From contig NZ_CP095187.1 in assembly GCF_022965755.1 (NCBI RefSeq), positions 2,914,001 through 2,978,000 on the forward strand: 64,000 nt of DNA, written 5' to 3'. This DNA comes from Pseudoxanthomonas sp. F37 (GTDB lineage: Bacteria; Pseudomonadota; Gammaproteobacteria; Xanthomonadales; Xanthomonadaceae). Under the pieces are notes generated by a model, which saw only the letters and a program-made list of their open reading frames with translations, was not told the origin of the DNA and ran no database searches. Each line of letters begins with the position of its first letter. Position 1 is the stretch's first letter. A program made the position numbers and the translations under genes. Below, piece after piece: positions 29,934 to 40,725 of the stretch.

Positions 29934-30941
29934 CTACCCCACGCGTTCCGCGGTGGACCCACGCAGCATCAGAGCAAAATCCAAGGTCTGCCGGTGCTGC
30001 ACGTCCATGCCGTCGATGATGGCGAGCAAGAGCTTCACGGCGCGAATGCCGATTTCGCGCATGGGTTGGCTGATGGTGGTCAAGGGCGGGTTGAGGTAAC
30101 GGGATGAGGCCAGGTCGTCGAAGCCGATGACCGAGACGTCATGCGGCACGCCGAGGCCGAGGTCCCTGCAGGCGGCCAGTACCCCCAACGCCATCTGGTC
30201 GCTGAAGCAGAAGGCCGCGGTCGGGGCGCCGGTGCCCTGCGCCAGCAGCTGCCTGGCCGCCGCGTAGCCGGACTCCACCGAGAAGTCGCCCGGCGCGAGT
30301 ATCAACTGGCGCAGGCGGCCGCGCGCCCTGGCGGCCGCCTTCGCCCCTTCCAGTCGTTGCCGATGCAGGGGATTGTCGGGCGGGCCACCGACTACCGCGA
30401 TGCGCTGATGCCCCAGTCCGTACAGGTGTTCCATCGCGGCGCGCGCGGCGGCGGCGTTGTCGATATGGACACTGGGAATGCCCAACGCCGGATCGAACTC
30501 GCAGCCATTGACCACCGGCGCGCGCGGGCCCAACTGCTGGACGATCTCGCGCGCCGTCGGCGGCAGCCGATGTCCCAGGACGATCAGGCCATCGGCCTCG
30601 TTGCGGCGAAGCATCTGCACGTAGCGCTCTTCGCGATCGGGCTGGTGCTGGGTATCGCCCAGGAGCACGGCGTAGTCGGCGGCCTGCGCGGTTTCTTCCG
30701 CACCCTGCAGGATCTTTGCGAAGAAGGGATTGGCGATGTCCGGCACGGTCACCAGGATCTTCCCGCTGCGCTGCGTCTTGAGCGTCCGGGCTATCGTGTT
30801 GGGGACATAGCCCAGTGCGGCCGCCGCCTGCTGGATGCGCTCGCGCGTGGCCGGCAGCACCTTCTCCGGGCGCGAGAGCGCGCGGGACACCGTCCCTGCC
30901 GAGACGCCCACGTGTCGAGCGATGTCGTAGATCGTCGCCAT
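29934..30941 (-). CDS. LacI-family transcriptional regulator of the sugar locus
   Basis: This 335-residue protein has a LacI-type DNA-binding domain at the N-terminus (TIYDIARHVGVSAGTVSRAL) with the hinge region near residues 48-58 (NTIARTLKTQRSG). A periplasmic-binding-protein-like effector domain follows (NPFFAKILQGAEETAQ, GFDDLASSRYLNPPLTTI). The start MATIYDIA is preferred over a longer in-frame start. It is divergent from the isomerase gene at 31034. The palindrome TGCAATCGATTGCA in front of both catabolic operons is its likely operator. The inducer is probably a pathway sugar. Confidence 0.93.
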   Translation of the reverse strand: MATIYDIARHVGVSAGTVSRALSRPEKVLPATRERIQQAAAALGYVPNTIARTLKTQRSGKILVTVPDIANPFFAKILQGAEETAQAADYAVLLGDTQHQPDREERYVQMLRRNEADGLIVLGHRLPPTAREIVQQLGPRAPVVNGCEFDPALGIPSVHIDNAAAARAAMEHLYGLGHQRIAVVGGPPDNPLHRQRLEGAKAAARARGRLRQLILAPGDFSVESGYAAARQLLAQGTGAPTAAFCFSDQMALGVLAACRDLGLGVPHDVSVIGFDDLASSRYLNPPLTTISQPMREIGIRAVKLLLAIIDGMDVQHRQTLDFALMLRGSTAERVG

Positions 30942-31004
30942 GTCAGCCCCGGCGTCTCCGATGCGCTGCACAACGCCTTTGCGCCGGACCCCATGCTAGG
31001 ATCG

Positions 31005-31018
31005 TGCAATCGATTGCA
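31005..31018. promoter_or_regulatory. Left LacI-type operator TGCAATCGATTGCA
   Basis: This perfect 14-bp palindrome with a central CG is typical of LacI-family sites. It lies 15 bases before the GTG start of the isomerase gene and 63 bases from the divergent regulator start, so binding could control both. An identical palindrome is at 39888-39901. The shared sequence extends to 18 bases, GTGCAATCGATTGCATCA, read toward the operon. Confidence 0.85.
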
Positions 31019-31033
31019 TCAGGGCCGATCGCC

Positions 31034-32086
31034 GTGAAGACACTCAAGGGTCCCGCGCTGTTCCTGGCGCAATTCATCGGTGACAAGCCTCCCTTCGATC
31101 GGTTGGATACCTTGGCCGAATGGGCGGCCGGGCTGGGCTATTCTGGCGTACAAGTGCCCACCAGCGCGCCCCATGTCTTCGACCTGGCGCAGGCGGCACA
31201 GAGCCAGGCGTACTGCGACGATATCGCCGGCATGCTGGACCGGCACGGCCTGCGCATCACCGAACTGTCCACCCACCTGCAGGGCCAGCTGGTCGCCGTC
31301 CATCCCGCGTACGACAGCCTGTTCGACGGGTTCGCCCCGCCGGAGAAGCGCGGCGATCCTTCTGCCCGGCAGGCGTGGGCGGTCGAACAGATGGCCATGG
31401 CCGCGCAGGCCAGCCAGCGCCTGGGACTGACCGCGCATGCGACGTTCTCGGGTGCATTGGCCTGGCCTTATTTCTACCCCTGGCCGCAGCGGCCGCCGGG
31501 CCTGGTGGAAGAGGCCTTCGCCGAACTCGGACGCCGCTGGCGTCCCATCCTGGACACCTTCGATGCCCACGGCGTCGACCTCTGCTACGAGATCCATCCC
31601 GGCGAAGACCTGCACGACGGTGCGACCTTCGAACGGTTCCTCGACGCGGTGGACCACCATCCGCGCGCCAAGATCCTCTACGACCCCAGCCACCTGCTGC
31701 TGCAGCAGATGGACTATCTGGGCTTCATCGACCGCTACCACGAGCGCATCGGCATCTTCCACGTGAAGGACGCCGAGTACCGCGCCAGTGCGCGCAGCGG
31801 CGTCTATGGCGGCTACGAGAACTGGATCGACCGTCCCGGCCGCTTCCGCTCGCTGGGCGATGGCCAGATCGATTTCAAAGCGATCTTCTCGAAGTTGGCG
31901 CAGTACGATTTCCCCGGCTGGGCAGTACTGGAATGGGAGTGCTGCCTGAAGCATCCGGAAGACGGCGCGCGCGAAGGCGCCGCCTTCATCCGCGACCATC
32001 TGATCCGCGTGACCGGGCGCGCCTTCGACGATTTCGCCGACAGCGGCGCGAGCCGGGAAACACTGCGCCGCATGCTGGGGATCTGA
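31034..32086 (+). CDS. Sugar phosphate isomerase/epimerase-type TIM-barrel protein (cytoplasmic)
   Basis: This 350-residue protein belongs to the AP-endonuclease-2/xylose-isomerase-like TIM-barrel family and has no signal peptide. Likely metal ligands are Glu in DLCYEIHPGEDLHDG, Asp and His in ILYDPSHLLLQ, His in IFHVKDAEY and Glu in AVLEWECCLK. Translation probably starts at GTG 31034 just after the operator. It is first in a five-gene operon with a permease and an oxidoreductase. Family members isomerise sugars or cleave keto-glycosides; the exact reaction here is unknown. Confidence 0.87.
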   Translation: MKTLKGPALFLAQFIGDKPPFDRLDTLAEWAAGLGYSGVQVPTSAPHVFDLAQAAQSQAYCDDIAGMLDRHGLRITELSTHLQGQLVAVHPAYDSLFDGFAPPEKRGDPSARQAWAVEQMAMAAQASQRLGLTAHATFSGALAWPYFYPWPQRPPGLVEEAFAELGRRWRPILDTFDAHGVDLCYEIHPGEDLHDGATFERFLDAVDHHPRAKILYDPSHLLLQQMDYLGFIDRYHERIGIFHVKDAEYRASARSGVYGGYENWIDRPGRFRSLGDGQIDFKAIFSKLAQYDFPGWAVLEWECCLKHPEDGAREGAAFIRDHLIRVTGRAFDDFADSGASRETLRRMLGI

Positions 32087-32113
32087 CCGGACACCGACCT
32101 GGGAGGGGAAGTC

Positions 32114-33340
32114 ATGACGTTCGCTATGTCGCGCCTGAGCGCGATGATGTTCCTGCAGTTCTTCATCTGGGGGGCGTGGTTCGTCACCCTGGGCACGTAT
32201 CTGGTGCAGGGCCCGCTGAAGGCCAGCGCAAGCCAGGTCGCCACCGCCTTCCTCAGCCAGTCCATCGGCGCCATCGTCGCGCCGTTCCTGGTCGGACTGA
32301 TCGCCGACCGCTACTTCGCCGCGCAACGCATCCTGGCGGTGCTGCACCTGGCCGGGGCGGTGCTGATGTGGTTCGCGTCCACGGCGACGAGCTTCGACGC
32401 ATTCGCTGCTTACGTGATGGCCTACATGCTGTTGTTCATGCCGACGCTGGCGCTGGCGAACAGCGTGGCGATGCGGCACATGCAGTCGCCGGAAAAACAG
32501 TTCCCGCCCGTGCGGGTCGCGGGCAGCATCGGCTGGATCGTCGCCGGCGTGCTGATCGGCTGGCTGGGCTGGGAACAGGCGCACCGCCTGGAGCTCACCT
32601 TCCGCATGGCCGCGGCGGCCTCGCTGATGCTGGGGCTGTACGCGTTCACCCTGCCGCACACGCCACCGCTGGCGCAGCAGCGCAACGCTTCGCTGGGCCA
32701 GATCCTGGGCCTGGACGCGTTGCGCCTGCTGAAGTCGCGCTCGTACCTGGTGTTCTTCCTGGCCTCCATCGCCATCTGCGTGCCGCTGTCGTTCTACTAC
32801 AACTTCACCAACCCATACCTCAACGACCTGGGTGTGCGCGGTGCGGCCGGCCTGCAGTCCCTGGGCCAGGTGTCCGAAGTGCTGCTGATGCTGGCCATGC
32901 CCTTCCTGTTCGCCCGGCTGGGGGTCAAGACCATGCTGGCGATCGGCATGGCGGCGTGGGTGGTGCGCTACGGGATGTTCGCCTATGGCGACGCCGGCGG
33001 CGGGTTCGCGCTGCTGGTCGTCGGCATCGTGCTGCACGGCATCTGCTACGACTTCTTCTTCGTCACCGGCCAGATCTACACCGACGCCCACGCGGGCCCG
33101 GCCGTACGCAGCAGCGCGCAAGGGTTCATCACGCTGGCCACCTATGGCGTGGGCATGCTGATCGGTACCTTCCTGTCCGGTGCGGTCGTCGAGCACTACA
33201 CCACGGCGGCGGGCCCGGACTGGCAGAAGATCTGGCTGTTCCCCGCGGCCGTGGCCTTCGTCGTGCTGGTGGCCTTCCTGCTGCTGTTCCGCGAGCGGCC
33301 GGTGTCCGCCGCTGCGCCCTCCACCTCGTCCGCCAGTTGA
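32114..33340 (+). CDS. MFS permease of the nucleoside:H+ symporter type
   Basis: This 408-residue integral inner-membrane transporter has about twelve hydrophobic segments. It starts MTFAMSRLSAMMFLQFFIWG and resembles NupG/XapB-like major-facilitator permeases. A mid-loop and late segments such as CYDFFFVTGQIYTDAHAG are typical of that group. In sugar loci of this kind, NupG-like permeases usually carry sugars or sugar derivatives rather than nucleosides. It probably imports the product of the periplasmic steps. It follows the isomerase by 27 bases. Confidence 0.88.
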   Translation: MTFAMSRLSAMMFLQFFIWGAWFVTLGTYLVQGPLKASASQVATAFLSQSIGAIVAPFLVGLIADRYFAAQRILAVLHLAGAVLMWFASTATSFDAFAAYVMAYMLLFMPTLALANSVAMRHMQSPEKQFPPVRVAGSIGWIVAGVLIGWLGWEQAHRLELTFRMAAAASLMLGLYAFTLPHTPPLAQQRNASLGQILGLDALRLLKSRSYLVFFLASIAICVPLSFYYNFTNPYLNDLGVRGAAGLQSLGQVSEVLLMLAMPFLFARLGVKTMLAIGMAAWVVRYGMFAYGDAGGGFALLVVGIVLHGICYDFFFVTGQIYTDAHAGPAVRSSAQGFITLATYGVGMLIGTFLSGAVVEHYTTAAGPDWQKIWLFPAAVAFVVLVAFLLLFRERPVSAAAPSTSSAS

Positions 33341-33351
33341 GGGGCCGTCGC

Positions 33352-34476
33352 ATGGGCAAGCTCGGGGTGGCCATCGTCGGCACCGGAATGATCGGCGCCG
33401 TGCATCGGCGCGCGGCCTTGCTGGCCGGCGCGGTCGTGCGTGGCGTCAGTGCGTCATCGCCGGAACGTGGCGCAGAAGTGGCGGAAGCGTGGGATGTGCC
33501 GCGCGCCTATCGCGACATCGGCGAAGCCCTCGCCGACCCGCAGGTGCAGGTGGTGCATGTGTGCACCCCCAACCACCTGCACCGCGCGATGGCGCAGGCC
33601 GCACTGGAAGCCGGCAAGCATGTGATCTGCGAGAAGCCGCTCGCCACCACCCTGCACGATGCCGAAGCGCTCTCCGCGCTGGCGGCCTCGGCCGGCCTGG
33701 TGGCGACGGTGCCGTTCGTCTACCGCTATCACCCGGTCGTCCGCGAAGCGCGCGCGCGGATCGCTCGCGGCGACCTGGGGCCGCTGCGGCTCATCCATGG
33801 CAGCTACCTGCAGGACTGGCTGCTGGACCCGGCCAGCAACAACTGGCGCGTGGATCCGGCACTGGGCGGCGCGTCGCGCGTCTTCGCCGACATCGGCTCG
33901 CACTGGTGCGACCTGGTGGAATGGGTCAGCGGCGAACGTTTCGTGGACGTCAGCGCGGCCTTCGAAACGGTGATCGCGCAACGCGCCGCCGCCACCGGGC
34001 TGAGTTTCGCAACGCCCGCGGCGGGCGGCGCGATGCAACCGGTATCCAGCGAAGACGTGGCCGCGGCGCTGTTCAAGACCGGCAACGGCACGCTGGCCTC
34101 GTTGACCGTCAGCCAGGTGTCGGCCGGACGCCGCAACCGCCTGTGGTTCGAGATCGACGGCGCGCAGGCCAGCGTGGCCTTCGATCAGGAAGACAGCGAA
34201 CGGCTCTGGATCGGCCTGCCCGACCAGCGCGAGGAGATCTTCGTGCGAGGTCCGGGCGCGGGAAGCGCCGAACAGCGCCGGCTGTCGGTGCTGCCGCCCG
34301 GCCACGCGCAGGGCTATGGCCACTGTTTCGACGCCTTCGTCGCCGACACCTACCGCGCCATCCTCGCCGAACGGCCCGAAGGACTGCCGACGTTCGAGGA
34401 CGGGCGGCGTTCGGCGCTCATCGTCGATCGCGTCATCGCCTCGGCCAGGTCGCGCGCCTGGACGCGCATTCCCTGA
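33352..34476 (+). CDS. Gfo/Idh/MocA-family oxidoreductase
   Basis: This 374-residue NAD(P)-dependent sugar oxidoreductase has an N-terminal Rossmann loop VAIVGTGMIGAVHRRA. The family motif CEKPLATT (Glu94-Lys95-Pro96) includes the catalytic Lys. A C-terminal alpha/beta domain contains GSHWCDLVEW, near the active site. No signal peptide is seen, so it is cytoplasmic. It probably reduces a keto-sugar or oxidises a sugar in the pathway. It starts 11 bases after the permease stop. Confidence 0.92.
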   Translation: MGKLGVAIVGTGMIGAVHRRAALLAGAVVRGVSASSPERGAEVAEAWDVPRAYRDIGEALADPQVQVVHVCTPNHLHRAMAQAALEAGKHVICEKPLATTLHDAEALSALAASAGLVATVPFVYRYHPVVREARARIARGDLGPLRLIHGSYLQDWLLDPASNNWRVDPALGGASRVFADIGSHWCDLVEWVSGERFVDVSAAFETVIAQRAAATGLSFATPAAGGAMQPVSSEDVAAALFKTGNGTLASLTVSQVSAGRRNRLWFEIDGAQASVAFDQEDSERLWIGLPDQREEIFVRGPGAGSAEQRRLSVLPPGHAQGYGHCFDAFVADTYRAILAERPEGLPTFEDGRRSALIVDRVIASARSRAWTRIP

Positions 34477-34537
34477 TCGAAGCGGCCATGACCGGCTTTG
34501 CCTTCCCCCACGCAGATCTCCGGACTCCGAGCACACC

Positions 34538-35392
34538 ATGAGCATCACGCCCTTGCGAAGAACCGCCACCGCCACGCTGCTGTTCCTGTCCTCCCTGCCC
34601 GGCTTCGCCAGGGACGCCACGCCGGCCCAGCCCGTCGCCGTGCAGATGTACACCCTGCGCCACGTGGCCTCGCTCGATGAACAACTGAAGATCGTGCACG
34701 ATGCCGGCGTGCGGGCGGTGGAAACCGTCGGCACGCAGAACGTCAGCGCCAGCGAACTGAAGCGGTTGCTGGACACGTATTCGATCAGGGTGATCTCCAG
34801 CCATGTGCAGTTGGCGGACCTGCGCGCGGACCTGGACGGCGTGGTCGCCTTCCAACAGGCCATCGGCAACACCGTGCTGGTGGTGCCCTATCTGGGCGAA
34901 CAGGAGCGGCCGACCGACGCGGCCGGCTGGACGGCCCTGGGCGAGGAACTGGCCGGCATCTCGGAACGGCTGCAAGCCAGGGGCATGACCCTGGCCTACC
35001 ACAACCACGACTTCGAACTGGTGGATTTCGCCGGCAGGACGGGACTGGAGCTGCTGTTCGAAGCGGCCGGCCCCGGATTGAAAACGGAACTGGATCTGGC
35101 CTGGGTGGCGCGCGCCGGGCTGGACCCGGCGGCGATGCTGGGCAAGTTCCGCGGGCGCCTGTTCGCGGTCCACGCCAAGGACAATGCCGCCCAGGGCCAG
35201 GCGCAGGACGAGGGCGGCTTCGCCGCTGTCGGCCAGGGCGTGCTGGACTGGGCATCGATCCTTCCCGCCGCCAGGGCCGCGGGCGTGCAATGGTTCATTG
35301 TCGAGCACGATCAACCGCGCGATCCCGCGGCGGTGGTGAAAGCCGGCGCGGACTATCTCAACAAGCACCTGCCTGCGGACGCAGTGCGCTGA
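34538..35392 (+). CDS. Exported sugar phosphate isomerase/epimerase-type TIM-barrel protein
   Basis: This 284-residue protein starts with a signal peptide (MSITPLRRTATATLLFLSSLPGFA). The mature part is a TIM barrel with VAVQMYTLRHVASLDEQL, the likely metal ligands in LAYHNHDFELVDF and FAVHAKDNAAQG, and WFIVEHDQPRDP. Export of an isomerase-like fold is unusual and points to chemistry on a free sugar or glycoside in the periplasm. It lies 61 bases after the oxidoreductase and 17 before a cytochrome c gene. Confidence 0.88.
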   Translation: MSITPLRRTATATLLFLSSLPGFARDATPAQPVAVQMYTLRHVASLDEQLKIVHDAGVRAVETVGTQNVSASELKRLLDTYSIRVISSHVQLADLRADLDGVVAFQQAIGNTVLVVPYLGEQERPTDAAGWTALGEELAGISERLQARGMTLAYHNHDFELVDFAGRTGLELLFEAAGPGLKTELDLAWVARAGLDPAAMLGKFRGRLFAVHAKDNAAQGQAQDEGGFAAVGQGVLDWASILPAARAAGVQWFIVEHDQPRDPAAVVKAGADYLNKHLPADAVR

Positions 35393-35409
35393 ATACCGGA
35401 GCGACCCCC

Positions 35410-35718
35410 ATGGTGAAATCCGTCATGCTGGCCGGCCTGTCTGTCGTGATGGCCGCCTCCGTCGCGGTCCCGGCGCTCTCGGCAGGCCCGCGGGATGCGG
35501 CGGCCGGTGCCCGGCTCTACGCCACCCAGTGTTCGGCCTGCCACGGCGCGGAACGTGCCGGCATTCCGGGCACCTTCCCTGCCCTCACTGACGTGGGCAA
35601 GCGGCTGGACGAAAAGCAGATCAGGGAGAAGATCGTGAACGGCGGCGGGCTGATGCCGCCCTTCAGCCAGCTCTCGGAAAAGGAGATCGACGACCTGGTC
35701 GCCTTCCTCCAGCAGTAG
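35410..35718 (+). CDS. Small periplasmic c-type cytochrome
   Basis: This 102-residue precursor has a signal peptide (about residues 1-25) and one haem-binding motif CSACH at residues 41-45. Met82 in GLMPPFSQL is the likely second axial ligand. It is a class I cytochrome c. It closes the left operon and stands tail-to-tail with the operon that encodes the flavin dehydrogenase, for which it is the obvious electron acceptor. Confidence 0.92.
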   Translation: MVKSVMLAGLSVVMAASVAVPALSAGPRDAAAGARLYATQCSACHGAERAGIPGTFPALTDVGKRLDEKQIREKIVNGGGLMPPFSQLSEKEIDDLVAFLQQ

Positions 35719-35747
35719 GCGGGACCGGACAGCGGCCGCGCAGCCGA

Positions 35748-36515
35748 TCAGAGTTCGCGCACCCAGACGTTGCGGAAGCTGACCCTGGCGTCGTGGTCCT
35801 GCAGGTAGATCGGGGCGCAGCCGTGGGGCGGATACGAGGGCGCGCCGATGTATTCGGTCTTGCCCGACACGACCGTATCGTTCTGCACCAGCACACCGTT
35901 GTGCAGCACCGTGATGCGCGCCGGGGAGACCAGGCCGCCGCCGTCGGAGAAGCGCGGCGCCTTCCAGATGATGTCGTAGACCTGCCATTGGCCCGGTGCG
36001 CGCGAGGCGTTCACCAGCGGAATGGCCTGCTTGTAGATCGATGCCGCCTGCCCGTTGGGATAGGTGGGGTTGTCGTAGCTGTCGAGCACCTGCAGTTCGT
36101 AGACCTCCTGCAGGAAGATGCCGCTGTTGCCGCGCTGCTGCCCCTCCAAACCCCGGGTCTCGGCAGGCGTGCGCCATTCCACATGCAACTGGATATCGCA
36201 GAAGCGCCGCTTCGTGCGGATGCCCTTGCTGCCCGGCACCACCGTGAATGCGCCGTCGGCCACCGCCCAGCGCGCCTGGCCGCCCTGCTCGCCGTCCCAC
36301 GCCGACAGGTCCTTGCCGTCGAACAGCACCACGGCATCGGAGGGCGCGGCGTCGCGGGGCGTGGCGACCATCGCCGGGACCGGCTTCCAGACTTCGGTCC
36401 TGGCGGGATCGCGCTGCGGGTCGGCGGTGGCCTGCGCGATCGCGGGCGCCGCGGCCAGCCCCCAAGGGGCCAGCAGGCAGGTCGCCATCAGGAGGGGTCG
36501 GGGCATCGGGGTCAT
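35748..36515 (-). CDS. Exported DUF1080 / 3-keto-disaccharide hydrolase family protein
   Basis: This 255-residue protein has a signal peptide (MTPMPRPLLMATCLLAPWGLA). A concanavalin-like DUF1080 domain, now named the 3-keto-disaccharide hydrolase family, follows. Marks are VVLFDGKDLSAWDG at its start, RGNSGIFLQEVYELQVLDSY in the middle and PIYLQDHDARVSFRNVWVREL at the end. It would hydrolyse keto-glycosides in the periplasm. An ATG at 36533 is an alternative start. It is last in the right operon, 47 bases after the small dehydrogenase subunit. Confidence 0.9.
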   Translation of the reverse strand: MTPMPRPLLMATCLLAPWGLAAAPAIAQATADPQRDPARTEVWKPVPAMVATPRDAAPSDAVVLFDGKDLSAWDGEQGGQARWAVADGAFTVVPGSKGIRTKRRFCDIQLHVEWRTPAETRGLEGQQRGNSGIFLQEVYELQVLDSYDNPTYPNGQAASIYKQAIPLVNASRAPGQWQVYDIIWKAPRFSDGGGLVSPARITVLHNGVLVQNDTVVSGKTEYIGAPSYPPHGCAPIYLQDHDARVSFRNVWVREL

Positions 36516-36562
36516 GGGCGTTCTCGTGAGCATGCGGGGCGCGGACGGACGGTGCAGGCCGC

Positions 36563-37138
36563 TCATTCGGTGGCCCAGGCCGGCGTGCCCGGCGTGTAGG
36601 CCAGGTCGCCGTCGTAGCGGCCGGGCACCGGCACGTACCGCAGCGCTTCGGTCGCACCCGGGCGCGAGGTGAAGAAACTGAAGATCGCCAGCTGCTTGAG
36701 CATGGTGAAGTAGTGCGGCGCCAGCGGCCCCGGGTCCACACCGCCTTCCTTCGCGGTGGTCGCCAGCCCCGCCCTGGCTTCGGCATCCAGCGTGCGCAGC
36801 AGGGCGCTGCGCGCATCCGGCGACAGCGCGAGGAACCGTTGCCCGCCACGCCGGTCCAGATCGGCCAGACCGTCGCGGAAGATCGCCTGGTTCTGCGGCG
36901 TGTAGCAATCGGCCACGTACCGGGCCATGAACGCGCCCGCGCCCGCATCCTTGGCCCCCGGCGTGCTGGTCCGCGGCAGGATGGTATCGGCCACCTCGTC
37001 CAGCAGCGCCACATCGGCTTCGGAAAAAGCGCTCGCGGCGCCGGCAACCGGCGCCTGCGCGCGGGTGAATGCCGGCAGGCCGATCATGGCCGCGCCGGTG
37101 GCGGCGGCGATCATCTTCAGCAGTTCGCGACGTTCCAT
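36563..37138 (-). CDS. Gluconate 2-dehydrogenase subunit 3-type small subunit
   Basis: This 191-residue partner of GMC flavin dehydrogenases carries a twin-arginine-like signal (MERRELLKMIAAATGAAMIG). In this family the small subunit carries the folded flavin subunit, which has no signal, across the membrane through Tat. The body has VALLDEVADTILPRTSTPGA and ends APHYFTMLKQLAIFSFFTS. Its ATG overlaps the stop of the GMC gene (TGATG), so the two are made together. Confidence 0.92.
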   Translation of the reverse strand: MERRELLKMIAAATGAAMIGLPAFTRAQAPVAGAASAFSEADVALLDEVADTILPRTSTPGAKDAGAGAFMARYVADCYTPQNQAIFRDGLADLDRRGGQRFLALSPDARSALLRTLDAEARAGLATTAKEGGVDPGPLAPHYFTMLKQLAIFSFFTSRPGATEALRYVPVPGRYDGDLAYTPGTPAWATE

Positions 37139-38823
37139 CACAGATTCCCCGCCTTGAGTTCACGCACCGCGTGGTCCGCCGCGCGCGCCGTCAACGCCAT
37201 GTAGGTCAGCGACGGATTCACGCAGGCGCTGGAAGTCATGCAGGCGCCATCGGTCACGTAGACGTTGGGCGCATCCCACACCTGGTTGTGCATGTTCAGT
37301 ACCGAGGACTTGCGGTCCCGCCCCATCCGCGCGGTGCCCATTTCGTGGATGCCCATGCCCGGCGCGTAGTCATCGTCATGCACCCGCACGTCCCTGATGC
37401 CCGCGGCCTCCAGCATCTCCGCGGCATCGGCGCCCATGTCCTTGCGCATGGCCCGCTCGTTCTCGCGCATGGACACGTCCATCGCCAGCACCGGCAGGCC
37501 CCACTTGTCCTTGCGCGCGGGGTCCAGGCTGATGCGGTTGTCGTGATACGGCAGCATCTCGCCGAACCCGGTCATGCCGATATGCCACTCGCCCGGCTGG
37601 GTCAACGCCTGCTTCAGTTCCGCCCCGATATTGAGCTCGGCGATTTCGCGCGACCACCCGGCGCGGCTGGCGCCGCCCTGATAGCCGAAGCCGCGCGCGT
37701 AGGCGCGCTTGTCGCTGCCGACGTTGCGGAAGCGCGGGATGTAGAAACCGCACGGACGGCGGCCGGAGTAGTACTTGTCCTCGTAGCCCTCGACGCGCCC
37801 CGAGGCACCGACGCGGAAATGATGGTCCATGACATTGTGGCCCAGCTCGCCCGAGGAGGAACCCAGGCCGCCTTCCCAGACATCGGTGGCCGAGTTCATC
37901 AGCAGCCAGGTGGAATTGAACGAGGACGCATTGAGGAAGACCACCTTGGCCGTGTACGCGTAGGTCTGGCCGTTCTCGGCATCGATGATCTCCACCCCGC
38001 GCGCGCGCTTGCGGTCCTTGTCGTACAGCACCTCCTTGACGATGGAGAACGGCCGCAGCGTCAGGTTGCCCGTCTTCATCGCCGCCGGCAGCGTGGCCGA
38101 CTGGGTGGAAAAGTACGCGCCGAACGGACAGCCCAGGATGCACTTGTTGCGGTACTGGCAGTTCACCCGGCCCTGCTCGGGCCTGGGCTGGGTGATGTTG
38201 GCGGTACGCGAGTGGATGAGGTGGCGCGTGCCGCCGAAGGCCTGCTTGATCCGCGCGGCCACGTCCTTCTCGACGATGTTCAAGGGAATGGGCGGCAGGA
38301 ATTCGCCATCGGGCAGCACGTCCAGCCCCTCACGCGTACCGGCGATGCCGGCGAACCGTTCGACGTGGTCGTACCAGGGCGCGATGTCGGCATAGCGGAT
38401 CGGCCAGTCGGTGGCGATGCCCTCTTTGAGGTTCGCCTCGAAGTCCAGGTCCGACAGGCGATAGCTCTGCCGGCCCCACAGCAGCGATCGGCCGCCGACG
38501 TGGTAGCCGCGGTACCAGTCGAAGCGCTTGGTTTCCGTGTAGGGGCAATCCTGCTCGTTCGCCCACATGTCCAGCGTGTTCTCGCCCAGGCCGCCGTCGC
38601 GCACGCGGACCGGGAACCTGGCCCGCATCTCCTGGGTGGGATGATTGCGGTGCGGGAAATCCCACGACTCCTTCATCGCGTTCACGTAGCCCTTGACGTG
38701 CTCGATGTTGCGGCCACGCTCCAGCATGAGGACCTTGAGGCCTTTCTCGGTCAGCTCCTTGGCCGCCCAACCGCCGCTGATGCCCGAGCCGACGACGATG
38801 GCGTCGTAGTGATTGTCTGCCAT
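37138..38823 (-). CDS. GMC-family FAD dehydrogenase, probable glycoside 3-dehydrogenase large subunit
   Basis: This 561-residue flavoprotein has an N-terminal FAD loop VVGSGISGGWAAKELTEKG and a C-terminal active-site region with HEMGTARMG and ACVNPSLTYMALTARAADH (catalytic His and Asn). Cys222, Cys228 and Cys232 form Cys-x5-Cys-x3-Cys, the spacing that binds a [3Fe-4S] cluster in FAD-dependent glucose dehydrogenase of Burkholderia. It has no signal peptide and would leave the cell with its Tat-type partner. Together with a DUF1080 hydrolase and a cytochrome c, a C3-oxidising role on glycosides is the best guess; gluconate or sorbitol oxidation is the main alternative. Confidence 0.9.
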   Translation of the reverse strand: MADNHYDAIVVGSGISGGWAAKELTEKGLKVLMLERGRNIEHVKGYVNAMKESWDFPHRNHPTQEMRARFPVRVRDGGLGENTLDMWANEQDCPYTETKRFDWYRGYHVGGRSLLWGRQSYRLSDLDFEANLKEGIATDWPIRYADIAPWYDHVERFAGIAGTREGLDVLPDGEFLPPIPLNIVEKDVAARIKQAFGGTRHLIHSRTANITQPRPEQGRVNCQYRNKCILGCPFGAYFSTQSATLPAAMKTGNLTLRPFSIVKEVLYDKDRKRARGVEIIDAENGQTYAYTAKVVFLNASSFNSTWLLMNSATDVWEGGLGSSSGELGHNVMDHHFRVGASGRVEGYEDKYYSGRRPCGFYIPRFRNVGSDKRAYARGFGYQGGASRAGWSREIAELNIGAELKQALTQPGEWHIGMTGFGEMLPYHDNRISLDPARKDKWGLPVLAMDVSMRENERAMRKDMGADAAEMLEAAGIRDVRVHDDDYAPGMGIHEMGTARMGRDRKSSVLNMHNQVWDAPNVYVTDGACMTSSACVNPSLTYMALTARAADHAVRELKAGNL

Positions 38824-38848
38824 GGGATTCCCCTGGTGGATATCGGAT

Positions 38849-39727
38849 TCAGATGTCGCACAGGCGCACGGCCTCGCGCAGCGAGGCGATGGGATCGGCG
38901 GCGGTGGGCACGAACTCCTGCGCCACGTAACCGTCGAAGCCCGTGTCGCGGATGGCGCGGCAGATGGCGGGATAGTTGAGTTCCTGGTCCGCGCCGATCT
39001 CGTGCCGGCCGGGCACGCCCGCGGTGTGGTAATGCCTGAAGAACGCGTGGTGCTTGCGGATCGTGGCGATCACATCGCCTTCCATGATCTGCATGTGGTA
39101 GATGTCGTAGAGCAGGCCGAAATGCCCGGAGCCCAGCCGCTGGCACAGCGCCACGCCCCAGTCGGAGCGGTCGCACAGATAGTCGGGGTGATCCACCTTC
39201 GAGTTCAGCAGTTCCATGACCAGCATGACGCCGCGCTTCTCCGCATGGCCCAGGACCCGTTTCAGGCCGGCTTCGGCGTTGGCCAGGCCCTCCTCCGGAT
39301 CCATGCCGTTGCGATTGCCGGAGAAGCAGATGAGGTTGCGGTACCCGGCGTCGGCGACCAGGTCGATGTGGCGGGTGTAGCGCTCGACCAGCCGGTCGTG
39401 GAACTCGGCAGCGGCGAAGCCCTTGTCCAGGCCGAGCTCCGCGCCGTTGCACATCGAGCTGAACACGCCGTGCGCTTTCAGCGTGGGCCAGTCCTGCGGG
39501 CCGACCAGATCGATGGCGGAAAATCCCACGTCCTTCACGGTCTGGCACAGCTGTGCGATGGACAGCTTCGGGAACGTCCAGCGGGCGACGGAGTGTTTGA
39601 GCGAGCCTTTGAGCGGCGCCGCTGCGCCAGCGCCAGCGATCAGCCCGGTACTGGCCAGCCCAATGCTGCCCAGCACGGCGGCACGCAGCGTATCCCTGCG
39701 GGTGAACCCCGCACCTGGCGCGCTCAT
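38849..39727 (-). CDS. Tat-exported hydroxypyruvate isomerase-like TIM-barrel protein
   Basis: This 292-residue protein has a twin-arginine signal (FTRRDTLRAAVLGSIGLAS). The body is a TIM barrel of the hydroxypyruvate isomerase/sugar epimerase type, with VMELLNSKVDHPDYLCDRSD, LLYDIYHMQIMEGDVI and the C-terminal YVAQEFVP. It heads the right operon, 25 bases before the GMC gene. It is the third barrel protein of the locus and the second that is exported. The operator at 39888 lies 160 bases upstream. Confidence 0.9.
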   Translation of the reverse strand: MSAPGAGFTRRDTLRAAVLGSIGLASTGLIAGAGAAAPLKGSLKHSVARWTFPKLSIAQLCQTVKDVGFSAIDLVGPQDWPTLKAHGVFSSMCNGAELGLDKGFAAAEFHDRLVERYTRHIDLVADAGYRNLICFSGNRNGMDPEEGLANAEAGLKRVLGHAEKRGVMLVMELLNSKVDHPDYLCDRSDWGVALCQRLGSGHFGLLYDIYHMQIMEGDVIATIRKHHAFFRHYHTAGVPGRHEIGADQELNYPAICRAIRDTGFDGYVAQEFVPTAADPIASLREAVRLCDI

Positions 39728-39887
39728 GGAGCCGGCCACCGCAAGCCTGCGCTCGCAAGCCGCATCCGGGACGTTGCCGCCCTCACAAGGCTGCGCCGGA
39801 CGAACCGCGCCCTGTCGGCCTGATCGGATAGACATCCATCCATGTGCCGGCCTCCCAACCGCACAAAGTTCCAAGGATTCGCCTTGA

Positions 39888-39901
39888 TGCAATCGATTGC
39901 A
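39888..39901. promoter_or_regulatory. Right LacI-type operator TGCAATCGATTGCA
   Basis: This palindrome is identical to the one at 31005-31018, 8.9 kb away. Read on the minus strand toward the GMC operon the shared sequence is again GTGCAATCGATTGCATCA. It lies about 160 bases before the first gene of that operon. No LacI-type gene is adjacent on this side, so the regulator at 29934-30941 probably acts on both ends. Confidence 0.85.
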
Positions 39902-40044
39902 CCATAAATCAGCCGAACACCGCGATGCAAGACTCCGGCACGCCTTCTTATGCTGCATGGCACAACGATCCGAGCGTTGCGCGGGCCGGTCAACAGCGGA
40001 CATCCGGCCGCTTCGGCATGCGCCCATGCAATGATCGGGACACC

Positions 40045-40725
40045 CTAATCGTTCATCAGGCAACGCGTGGTGGCCATGATTCTTGCGCTTCGGGTGGCAT
40101 TGACCGACGGCGTGTGCAGCAAGCGCATATCCATCAGGAACACATCGCCTGCGCGCCCCGCCATCTCGACGATCCCCATGCCAATCCTGTCCAGATCCTG
40201 TTGCAGGTGCGTCGACATCCTGAGCATCCGCCGCAACGCAGGCCCATCCACTTCAGGCCGGTGAGAGCCGGCGAGCGCGAGAGTCGCGCCGCCATGCGGG
40301 GCGACATCGTCGATGAGAAAGAACGCCTGCACACCAGGAACGGGGCCACGCGCATCAGCGGCCACATCCACATGCCAATTGAGGCCTTGCAGCGTCCATG
40401 CGCCCTGCTGAGGCGGCGACAGAAGCAGCTGCGTCGCCTGGACATTGCTGGGGCTGCGCCCTCCAAGACCGGCAACGATCGCACTCAGTTCGCGGGTCAT
40501 GAGCGCGGCATGCAACCCCGGCACCTCCATCGACCTGGACAGCGCTCCGATCTGCTGGAACGCCGGCAACGAACGTAGCGACCGGGGAAGTCCCCTGCCG
40601 CGGTATACCTGCTTGAGCTTCTCAAGCACGGCTCGTCTGATCGGCTCGACCCTCGCCCTGGGATGAAAGCCTCCCAAGCGAACGAATCCGCTTGAAGTGA
40701 AGGCCGCTGATGCGTCGTTTCTCAT
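40045..40725 (-). CDS. Phytanoyl-CoA dioxygenase (PhyH) family protein
   Basis: This 226-residue protein is of the iron/2-oxoglutarate-dependent PhyH family. The iron ligands are His and Asp in GLNWHVDVAAD and a later His in MRLLHTPSVNATRSARIM, where the Arg should bind 2-oxoglutarate. The substrate cannot be told. It ends about 140 bases before the right operator and shares the orientation of the GMC operon, so it is upstream of that operon, but a separate transcript seems likely. Confidence 0.85.
   Translation of the reverse strand: MRNDASAAFTSSGFVRLGGFHPRARVEPIRRAVLEKLKQVYRGRGLPRSLRSLPAFQQIGALSRSMEVPGLHAALMTRELSAIVAGLGGRSPSNVQATQLLLSPPQQGAWTLQGLNWHVDVAADARGPVPGVQAFFLIDDVAPHGGATLALAGSHRPEVDGPALRRMLRMSTHLQQDLDRIGMGIVEMAGRAGDVFLMDMRLLHTPSVNATRSARIMATTRCLMND

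What the first reader, a model, noticed from the sequence alone, without database searches (positions are those of the whole stretch)
29934..39902. Two-operon locus that looks like a periplasmic 3-keto-glycoside pathway
Seen: a GMC dehydrogenase with its Tat-type small subunit, a small cytochrome c, an exported DUF1080 protein, two exported and one cytoplasmic TIM-barrel isomerase-like proteins, an MFS permease, a Gfo/Idh oxidoreductase and a LacI regulator. Known: DUF1080 is now the 3-keto-disaccharide hydrolase family, and GMC/small-subunit/cytochrome sets oxidise sugars in the periplasm. Inferred: a glycoside is oxidised at C3, cleaved outside, and the keto-sugar is imported and converted. 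The mix of a respiratory flavin oxidation step with a Gfo/Idh step inside, and of three barrel proteins in different compartments, does not match one well-known pathway.
Basis: partly seen in the sequence, partly recalled or inferred. Interest (0 to 1): 0.78.

Follow-up and report, generated by a model that had tools for sequence, protein, structure and literature searches.

The report
Periplasmic sugar-oxidation route for cutting glycosides
This bacterium carries a ten-gene set that probably breaks down glycosides by oxidising their sugar outside the cell, snapping the bond without water and importing the piece; nearly every step resembles enzymes already described, but one conserved exported enzyme still has no known job.

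Summary
In detail: ten genes at 29934-39727, in two convergent operons, encode the families named. Both operons carry the palindrome TGCAATCGATTGCA, found nowhere else in the 3.97 Mb genome at up to one mismatch. It occurs in the 16 of 37 same-genus genomes that have the locus and in none of the other 21.

It is a C3-oxidation glycoside pathway, but it does match described ones. The cytoplasmic barrel is 72% identical to hydratase AtHYD; one exported barrel is 57% identical to 3-keto-O-glycoside eliminase AtOGE, metal ligands and catalytic His conserved. The other genes resemble the Caulobacter lactose cluster. Cleavage is probably elimination then hydration, not direct hydrolysis.

Two points stay open. 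None of 47 hydratase relatives shows an export-type N-terminus; 17 of 17 close eliminase relatives (14 from one genus) and 22 of 30 distant ones do, so a 3-keto-glycal may be what is imported. The third barrel (38849-39727) is Tat-type, conserved with the dehydrogenase into Bacteroidota, and unassigned; 3-keto-glycoside epimerase or isomerase is my guess. Verdict: new member of a known kind.

The parts
29934..30941 (-). LacI-family regulator, probable local repressor of both operons
   Evidence: Pfam LacI HTH + Peripla_BP_3; best NCBIfam CytR 320.8 bits, below its cut-off 436; operator pair
31005..31018 (.). Operator TGCAATCGATTGCA in front of the rightward operon, between the divergent LacI and hydratase genes
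   Evidence: binding not tested
31034..32086 (+). Cytoplasmic TIM barrel: 2-hydroxy-3-keto-glucal hydratase (AtHYD orthologue), GTG start
   Evidence: 253/349 identical to PDB 8RO4; 8RO4 title names AtHYD from A. tumefaciens; no export-type N-terminus in 47 of 47 relatives
32114..33340 (+). MFS permease (Nuc_H_symport), candidate importer of the 3-keto-glycal or 3-keto-sugar
   Evidence: Pfam 397 bits; substrate inferred from context only
33352..34476 (+). Gfo/Idh/MocA oxidoreductase, candidate 3-ketoglucose reductase
   Evidence: Pfam; best NCBIfam levoglucosan dehydrogenase 181.8 bits, cut-off 650; role inferred from the A. tumefaciens operon
34538..35392 (+). Exported TIM barrel: 3-keto-O-beta-glycoside beta-eliminase (AtOGE orthologue)
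   Evidence: 145/253 identical to 8BVK; of nine AtOGE residues checked, eight are conserved (His132, His134, Asp163, His189, Glu233, Glu161, Glu39, His66); Asn52 is Lys75 here
35410..35718 (+). Small exported mono-haem cytochrome c, possible electron acceptor of the dehydrogenase
   Evidence: Pfam Cytochrome_CBB3 62 bits; CSACH; detected in 7 of 15 same-genus loci and 6 of 80 named loci
35748..36506 (-). Exported PF06439/DUF1080 protein, probable 3-keto-glycoside eliminase/hydratase of an uncharacterised subfamily
   Evidence: 144 bits vs cut-off 26.8; 120/215 identical to 4QHZ; model matches 8rr2, 9fbe, 8v31, 8tda, 3osd at 18-19% identity, TM 0.57-0.59 by query length
36563..37138 (-). Tat-type small subunit of the dehydrogenase (Gluconate_2-dh3)
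   Evidence: Pfam 114 bits; RR N-terminus
37138..38823 (-). GMC flavo-dehydrogenase, probable glycoside 3-dehydrogenase; no signal of its own, so probably exported with its Tat partner
   Evidence: Pfam; Cys222, Cys228, Cys232 invariant in 11 aligned sequences and aligned with the same segment of solved glucose and fructose dehydrogenases
38849..39727 (-). Tat-type exported TIM barrel of unknown reaction, conserved with the dehydrogenase; candidate 3-keto-glycoside epimerase/isomerase
   Evidence: Pfam AP_endonuc_2 92 bits; relatives at 45% identity or more in 15 same-genus and 39 of 80 named loci, within 400 bp upstream of the dehydrogenase in 15 and 26 of these; invariant E172, D208, H234, E271; model pLDDT 85.9; fold matches
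39888..39901 (.). Operator TGCAATCGATTGCA in front of the leftward operon
   Evidence: binding not tested

Best explanation
A LacI-controlled locus for non-hydrolytic use of glycosides. In the periplasm the GMC dehydrogenase, carried out by its Tat subunit, oxidises the sugar of a glycoside at C3 and passes electrons to a cytochrome c. The exported AtOGE-type barrel then eliminates the aglycone or second sugar from the 3-keto-beta-glycoside, leaving 2-hydroxy-3-keto-glucal; the exported DUF1080 protein probably does the same for other (perhaps alpha) linkages and may also hydrate. The MFS permease imports the 3-keto-glycal or 3-keto-sugar, the cytoplasmic AtHYD-type barrel adds water, and the Gfo/Idh enzyme reduces 3-ketoglucose to glucose. 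The third barrel (38849-39727) does an extra periplasmic step on keto-sugars, probably epimerisation or isomerisation. Shown here: gene content, conserved active-site residues, shared operators, co-conservation. Inferred from orthologues: oxidation, elimination, hydration. Inferred from context only: regulator-operator binding, transport substrate, Gfo role, electron transfer to this cytochrome, third barrel, and which glycosides are used.
For: Hydratase 72% identical to 8RO4 over its full length, eliminase 57% identical to 8BVK with eight of nine checked residues kept (8RO4 title). Tat-type small subunit and cysteine motif in the dehydrogenase. Both operons carry one operator found only there in this genome and found in same-genus genomes only together with the locus. 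Gene order kept in same-genus loci and in Lysobacter and Stenotrophomonas loci L051, L052; parts of the set kept in more distant loci. Compartment pattern. Genetics of the Caulobacter cluster; the same paper names Indibacter alkaliphilus LW1, whose locus L077 carries a 69% identical GMC plus hydratase 64%, MFS 57% and third barrel 55%.
Against: No activity, expression or growth data were available for this organism. The Gfo enzyme is below every NCBIfam cut-off and, outside L051 and L052, 23-35% identical to the Gfo proteins of the other loci; 21 of 59 Gfo relatives have RR near the N-terminus, so in some loci a Gfo protein may itself be exported. The DUF1080 protein is 18-19% identical to members with a named reaction. 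AtOGE Asn52, reported to activate the catalytic His, is Lys here. The cytochrome gene was not detected in 7 of the 14 same-genus loci that span its place and was detected in only 6 of 80 named loci, though a short variable protein is easily missed. Close eliminase relatives were found in only 3 of 80 named loci. The hydrophobicity test is crude.
Confidence: 0.8

Rival explanations
1. One reading: the glycoside is oxidised at C3 and directly hydrolysed in the periplasm by DUF1080; the barrels are sugar isomerases acting on the released keto-sugar.
For: Pfam calls PF06439 '3-keto-disaccharide hydrolase'; [quoted passage not shown]
Against: Two barrels are orthologues of a beta-eliminase and a hydratase; fold relatives of the DUF1080 model are titled eliminase/hydratase. 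Elimination plus hydration is formally hydrolysis, so the two versions differ in mechanism and not in net outcome.
Confidence: 0.12
2. The dehydrogenase is a polyol, gluconate or free-sugar dehydrogenase and the other genes are only neighbours.
For: The nearest solved GMC enzymes are FAD glucose and fructose dehydrogenases; the small subunit is named for gluconate 2-dehydrogenase.
Against: Those matches are weak (118 bits at best), while dehydrogenase and hydratase occur together in 31 of 54 well-flanked named loci and the two operons share operators.
Confidence: 0.05
3. Same pathway, other crossing point: DUF1080 hydrates in the periplasm (as hydratase or bifunctional enzyme), so 3-ketoglucose, not the 3-keto-glycal, is imported and the cytoplasmic hydratase handles only imported or leaked glycal.
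For: Fold relatives are titled eliminase/hydratase or hydratase; a B. thetaiotaomicron lyase variant is described as deficient in hydration, implying that the wild type hydrates (passage of PMC13273386).
Against: The hydratase is kept at 59-96% identity without export-type N-terminus in 47 loci, and L053 has it with the eliminase but no DUF1080 hit in the fetched stretch.
Confidence: 0.35

Closest known systems
Agrobacterium tumefaciens four-enzyme O-glucoside pathway (GlycDH/TAT, AtOGE 8BVK, AtHYD 8RO4, Gfo; PMC10628242)
   Same: GMC dehydrogenase with Tat partner, orthologous eliminase and hydratase, one Gfo/Idh
   Different: Here also a cytochrome c, a DUF1080 protein, an MFS permease, a third exported barrel and a LacI gene with two operators; the Gfo is not shown to be orthologous
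Caulobacter crescentus lacABC lactose 3-dehydrogenase cluster with DUF1080 CCNA_01705 (PMC9007349 section 10)
   Same: Three-part dehydrogenase, DUF1080, transporter, epimerase-like proteins and a reductase in one cluster
   Different: Three barrels here, two sugar epimerases described there; the Caulobacter sequences were not compared; substrate here unknown
Bacteroides BT2156-BT2160 and Alistipes 3-keto-glycoside systems
   Same: DUF1080 proteins; structures titled eliminase/hydratase or hydratase
   Different: NCBIfam calls BT_2158 and BT_2159 glycoside and disaccharide 3-dehydrogenases; our Gfo scores 35 and 41 bits against cut-offs 750 and 650. Deletion of BT2157 or BT2158 gave no growth defect on raffinose-family sugars (passage of PMC11501099)
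Levoglucosan pathway LgdA-LgdB1-LgdB2-LgdC (PMC10066097, passages)
   Same: Same chemistry; the Gfo here is nearest the levoglucosan dehydrogenase model
   Different: NAD-dependent oxidation and ABC import there, flavin oxidation here; below the model's cut-off
E. coli YcjR 3-dehydro-D-guloside 4-epimerase and Hyi hydroxypyruvate isomerase
   Same: Fold group and several metal-site residues of the third barrel
   Different: 21% and 24% identity; the third barrel has a Tat-type N-terminus, whereas YcjR and Hyi are recalled as cytoplasmic (not checked)

Membership tests
A. tumefaciens-type non-hydrolytic glucoside pathway | GMC flavo-dehydrogenase with Tat-signal partner | tested here: met
A. 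tumefaciens-type non-hydrolytic glucoside pathway | OGE-type Mn ligands and catalytic His | tested here: met
   H155, H157, D186, H212, E256 conserved, 145/253 identical
A. tumefaciens-type non-hydrolytic glucoside pathway | HYD-type 2-hydroxy-3-keto-glucal hydratase | tested here: met
   253/349 identical to 8RO4
A. tumefaciens-type non-hydrolytic glucoside pathway | Gfo oxidoreductase that reduces 3-ketoglucose | tested here: inconclusive
   Gfo/Idh present but not compared with the A. tumefaciens Gfo; below every NCBIfam cut-off
A. tumefaciens-type non-hydrolytic glucoside pathway | Measured C3 oxidation and eliminative cleavage | not testable with these tools
   needs enzyme assays
Caulobacter LacABC/DUF1080 lactose system | Three-part dehydrogenase with DUF1080, transporter, epimerase-like proteins and reductase in one cluster | tested here: met
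Caulobacter LacABC/DUF1080 lactose system | Sequence orthology to LacA | not tested
   No Caulobacter locus is among the 80 returned; indirect link through Indibacter alkaliphilus LW1 (L077, 69%)
PF06439 3-keto-disaccharide hydrolase family | Pfam gathering score | tested here: met
   144 bits vs 26.8
Named eliminase/hydratases with solved structure (8rr2, 9fbe, 8v31, 8tda; BT2157 3osd) | Close sequence relationship | tested here: not met
   18-19% identity in the structure alignment; nearest is 4qhz at 53%
BT_2158 / BT_2159 Gfo glycoside 3-dehydrogenases | NCBIfam cut-offs | tested here: not met
   35 and 41 bits vs 750 and 650
Levoglucosan dehydrogenase NF052479 | NCBIfam cut-off | tested here: not met
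   181.8 vs 650 bits
YcjR 3-keto-glucoside 4-epimerase (for 38849-39727) | Glu/Asp/His/Glu metal-site residues and fold | tested here: inconclusive
   E172, D208, H234, E271, H211, R241 aligned with identical residues in YcjR; TM 0.78 by target length; but the third-barrel profile scores Hyi 66 bits and YcjR 35.5, and several D-psicose 3-epimerase chains rank above YcjR by Foldseek E-value
Hydroxypyruvate isomerase TIGR03234 (for 38849-39727) | NCBIfam cut-off | tested here: not met
   93.5 vs 353.45 bits; at the column of H234 Hyi has Gln

The most novel reading that the evidence does not exclude
The third barrel is a Tat-exported, metal-dependent 3-keto-glycoside epimerase or isomerase, a conserved periplasmic step missing from the published four-enzyme scheme, which turns 3-keto-galactosides or other 3-keto-hexosides into 3-keto-glucosides before elimination, so that one eliminase/hydratase line serves many sugars; and the compound that crosses the inner membrane is the unsaturated 3-keto-glycal and not a sugar.
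Probability: 0.25. Interest if true: 0.55.

Novelty: new member of a known kind. Interest (0 to 1): 0.36.

Why it matters
It joins two literatures in one locus: the A. [quoted passage not shown] A hydratase orthologue and a Gfo gene give such a keto-sugar a concrete, testable route. The compartment pattern and the conserved exported third barrel mark the two steps that remain unexplained, and the operator pair makes the regulon easy to test.

Tried and rejected
Considered and rejected: (1) direct hydrolysis by DUF1080 as the only cleavage, because two barrels are eliminase and hydratase orthologues; (2) Bacteroides-type Gfo dehydrogenase, NCBIfam cut-offs not met; (3) levoglucosan pathway, cut-off not met; (4) C-glycoside deglycosidase: no chain named as such is in the sequence-search lists of the three barrels (some entries there carry only generic names, e.g. 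8tct, 8tcs, 8tcd), such enzymes appear for the third barrel only as fold matches at 14-16% identity (7drd, 8un2, 8qrz, 7bvs), and no Pfam hit of the ten proteins is a small CGE subunit; (5) third barrel as a second eliminase or hydratase: its profile scores OGE and HYD proteins below 5 bits, Hyi 66 and YcjR 35.5.

Led nowhere: promoter and terminator scan, 0 and 4 sites against 1.1 and 4.9 in shuffles; paper search for the compartment idea with six terms together, 0 papers; papers seen only as passages that did not help: PMC9765024, PMC11003636. So nothing here is claimed to be absent from print.

Dropped before counts: tblastn places under 45 bits, or overlapping a better one by over 30%, were dropped. 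One search's locus count uses 54 of 80 named loci (at least 8 kb on both sides). Of the 50 named loci with a third-barrel hit, 39 reach 45% identity over a long enough stretch; the other 11 are weak or cut hits. Searches used 49 of the 54 (15 + 39) relatives plus the window; one search used 16 of 29 DUF1080 relatives plus the window.


Full report
What is there. Window 29934-39902 holds ten intact genes in two convergent operons. Rightward: hydratase-type barrel, MFS permease, Gfo/Idh oxidoreductase, exported eliminase-type barrel, cytochrome c. Leftward: exported barrel of unknown function, GMC dehydrogenase, its Tat-type small subunit, exported DUF1080 protein. A LacI gene is divergent from the rightward operon. 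Each protein hits its Pfam family above cut-off. The window lies in a one-contig genome of 3.97 Mb with one PF06439 match. The nearest named loci by dehydrogenase identity are Lysobacter sp. Root690 (90%) and an uncultured Stenotrophomonas (89%), so the organism is probably one of the Xanthomonadaceae; I did not establish its name.

Regulation. The palindrome TGCAATCGATTGCA stands at 31005-31018 and 39888-39901. In the whole genome these are the only matches at up to one mismatch, with none for the reversed control. In 61 genomes searched for exact sites, it occurs in 16 of 37 same-genus genomes (own included), exactly the 16 that carry the dehydrogenase at 86% identity or more, and in none of the other 21, three of which (G026, G033, G035) have a 59-60% identical dehydrogenase; of 24 genomes of other genera one has a single site (G058). 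In 15 of the 16 two sites lie on one contig, 8.6 to 13.9 kb apart, and by coordinates they bracket the locus; both ends were seen in fetched sequence for ten loci and, with the extra stretches, for G002 and G017. In G013 the two sites are on different contigs. Against exclusivity: G015 has a third site, and it and the G058 site lie beside a TonB receptor and an alpha-amylase-family gene with a LacI-like gene nearby, so the motif also serves elsewhere. That the LacI of the window binds it is inferred.

The enzymes. The 31034-32086 protein matches 8RO4 over its full length (603.6 bits, 253 of 349 identical); 8RO4 is titled 2-hydroxy-3-keto-glucal hydratase AtHYD from A. tumefaciens. The 34538-35392 protein matches 8BVK (321.5 bits, 145 of 253 identical), which PMC10628242 (passages; sections 7, 8 and 14 read) identifies as the O-glycoside beta-eliminase AtOGE. 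Its Mn ligands His132, Asp163, His189 and Glu233, the catalytic His134 and the alternative-site residues Glu39, His66 and Glu161 are present; the ninth residue checked, Asn52, reported to activate the His, is Lys75 here. That paper describes oxidation by GlycDH, elimination by AtOGE, hydration by AtHYD (there on preliminary evidence) and reduction by a Gfo enzyme. The dehydrogenase has Cys222, Cys228 and Cys232 invariant in 11 aligned sequences, aligned with the corresponding segment of solved glucose and fructose dehydrogenases; that these bind a 3Fe-4S cluster there is recalled. The DUF1080 protein is closest to the uncharacterised 4QHZ (120 of 215 identical); its model (pLDDT 79.8) also matches structures titled 3-keto-glycoside eliminase/hydratase (8rr2, 9fbe), 3-keto-2-hydroxy-glucal hydratase (8v31, 8tda) and BT2157 (3osd), at 18-19% identity. 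The label 'hydrolase' is therefore doubtful, and the exact reaction of this member is open.

Conservation. In the 15 same-genus neighbourhoods fetched, the gene order and the convergent arrangement are kept where the stretch reaches, with inserts at the junction in L034, L042, L043 and L044. The cytochrome gene was detected in 7 of the 15; L037 ends before its place and 7 span it without a hit. In the 80 named loci found through the dehydrogenase, tblastn finds the small subunit in 72, third barrel in 50 (11 of them weak or cut), Gfo in 47, hydratase in 37, MFS in 37, an eliminase-like barrel in 33 (at 50% identity or more in 3), DUF1080 in 28, LacI in 7 and the cytochrome in 6. With stricter limits in the 54 loci with 8 kb on both sides: hydratase 31, third barrel 29, both 26. 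The third barrel lies within 400 bp upstream of a dehydrogenase in 26 of 39 named and 15 of 15 same-genus loci, elsewhere in the cluster in the rest. In a sample of 369 genomes of the class, not chosen by the dehydrogenase, the third barrel (E <= 1e-30) occurs in 4, the dehydrogenase (E <= 1e-100) in 5 and the hydratase (E <= 1e-30) in 11; the three third-barrel hits at 63% identity or more, the window included, lie next to a dehydrogenase hit, the fourth (45%) does not. So the hydratase is used beyond this dehydrogenase, while close third-barrel relatives go with it.

Compartments. With a simple test (mean hydropathy of 11 residues at least 1.6 in the first 40), an export-type N-terminus is called in 0 of 47 hydratase relatives (10 same-genus, L046, 36 named), 17 of 17 eliminase relatives at 50% identity or more (14 same-genus, 3 named), 22 of 30 more distant eliminase-like relatives, 26 of 27 DUF1080 relatives, 32 of 50 third barrels (RR in 45 of 50) and 88 of 93 small subunits (RR in 90). 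The test is crude: it also of 110 dehydrogenases and 26 of 59 Gfo proteins, and would call the Gfo of the window (2.09), which starts directly with its nucleotide-binding fold; 21 of the 59 Gfo relatives have RR near the N-terminus, so some of those may really be exported. The pattern implies that elimination is periplasmic and hydration cytoplasmic, so that the permease would import 2-hydroxy-3-keto-glucal, unless DUF1080 hydrates outside. The words periplasm, cytoplasm and transport do not occur in the main text of PMC10628242.

The third barrel. It is no close relative of the other two barrels (profile scores below 5 bits). NCBIfam places it nearest hydroxypyruvate isomerase, far below cut-off. 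Its model (pLDDT 85.9) is nearest 3ngf (TM 0.80 by target length); the 3-keto-glucoside 4-epimerase YcjR 6wn6 follows closely by TM (0.78), above the listed ketose 3-epimerases and AtHYD (0.52), although by E-value several D-psicose 3-epimerase chains rank before YcjR. The invariant E172, D208, H234 and E271 align with identical YcjR residues; at H234 Hyi has Gln. Overall the profile prefers Hyi (66 bits) to YcjR (35.5). I read the protein as a metal-dependent epimerase or isomerase of 3-keto-glycosides; a C4-epimerase would help to explain why such clusters can serve galactosides such as lactose in Caulobacter. L053, an Agrobacterium-labelled assembly with eliminase and hydratase, has no third-barrel hit. 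This part is a hypothesis.

Link to genetics. [quoted passage not shown] its locus L077 has the hydratase at 64%, the MFS at 57%, the third barrel at 55% and the dehydrogenase at 69% identity to the window, but its DUF1080 and eliminase-like proteins at only 22% and 26%. Caulobacter proteins themselves were not compared.

Verdict. The gene set is real, conserved and, by its operators, very probably co-regulated. It is an additional member of the oxidation-elimination-hydration-reduction glycoside pathways and combines contents of the A. tumefaciens and the Caulobacter versions. What the literature that I could read does not explain is the conserved exported third barrel and the compound that crosses the inner membrane.

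Noticed in passing
L131:5299 (G015) and L132:5404 (G058): The same exact operator occurs beside a TonB receptor and an alpha-amylase-family gene, with a LacI-like gene nearby; it looks like a sucrose-type regulon (recalled gene association), so this palindrome is probably shared by other LacI-type regulators.
   Followed up: partly
L034:3322-5823 (-): In one same-genus genome (G002) a melibiase/GH31-like protein with a Tat-type N-terminus (Pfam 44 and 40 bits; sequence) sits between the two operons, a hint that alpha-galactosides may be substrates there.
   Followed up: partly
L042:12839-14709 and L044:2384-7411: Other same-genus genomes carry unrelated genes at the same point between the operons (RpiR/SIS regulator and ketopantoate reductase in L042; a 1177-aa protein and short repeated relatives in L044), as if the convergent junction tolerates insertions.
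   Followed up: no
L029 (G024) and places in G002, G012, G013, G026, G033, G036 listed: Several same-genus genomes hold a second dehydrogenase paralogue at 47-50% identity; G026, G033 and G035 hold a 59-60% one and no operator: perhaps a separate, differently regulated version of the locus.
   Followed up: no
window 40045-40725 (-): Phytanoyl-CoA dioxygenase-like gene (Pfam 39.5 bits) directly beyond the second operator.
   Followed up: no
L064, L078, L107, L108: Bacteroidota loci with three to six dehydrogenase copies in a row (43-69% identity to the window's) beside a third-barrel gene; substrate diversification by gene multiplication is possible.
   Followed up: no
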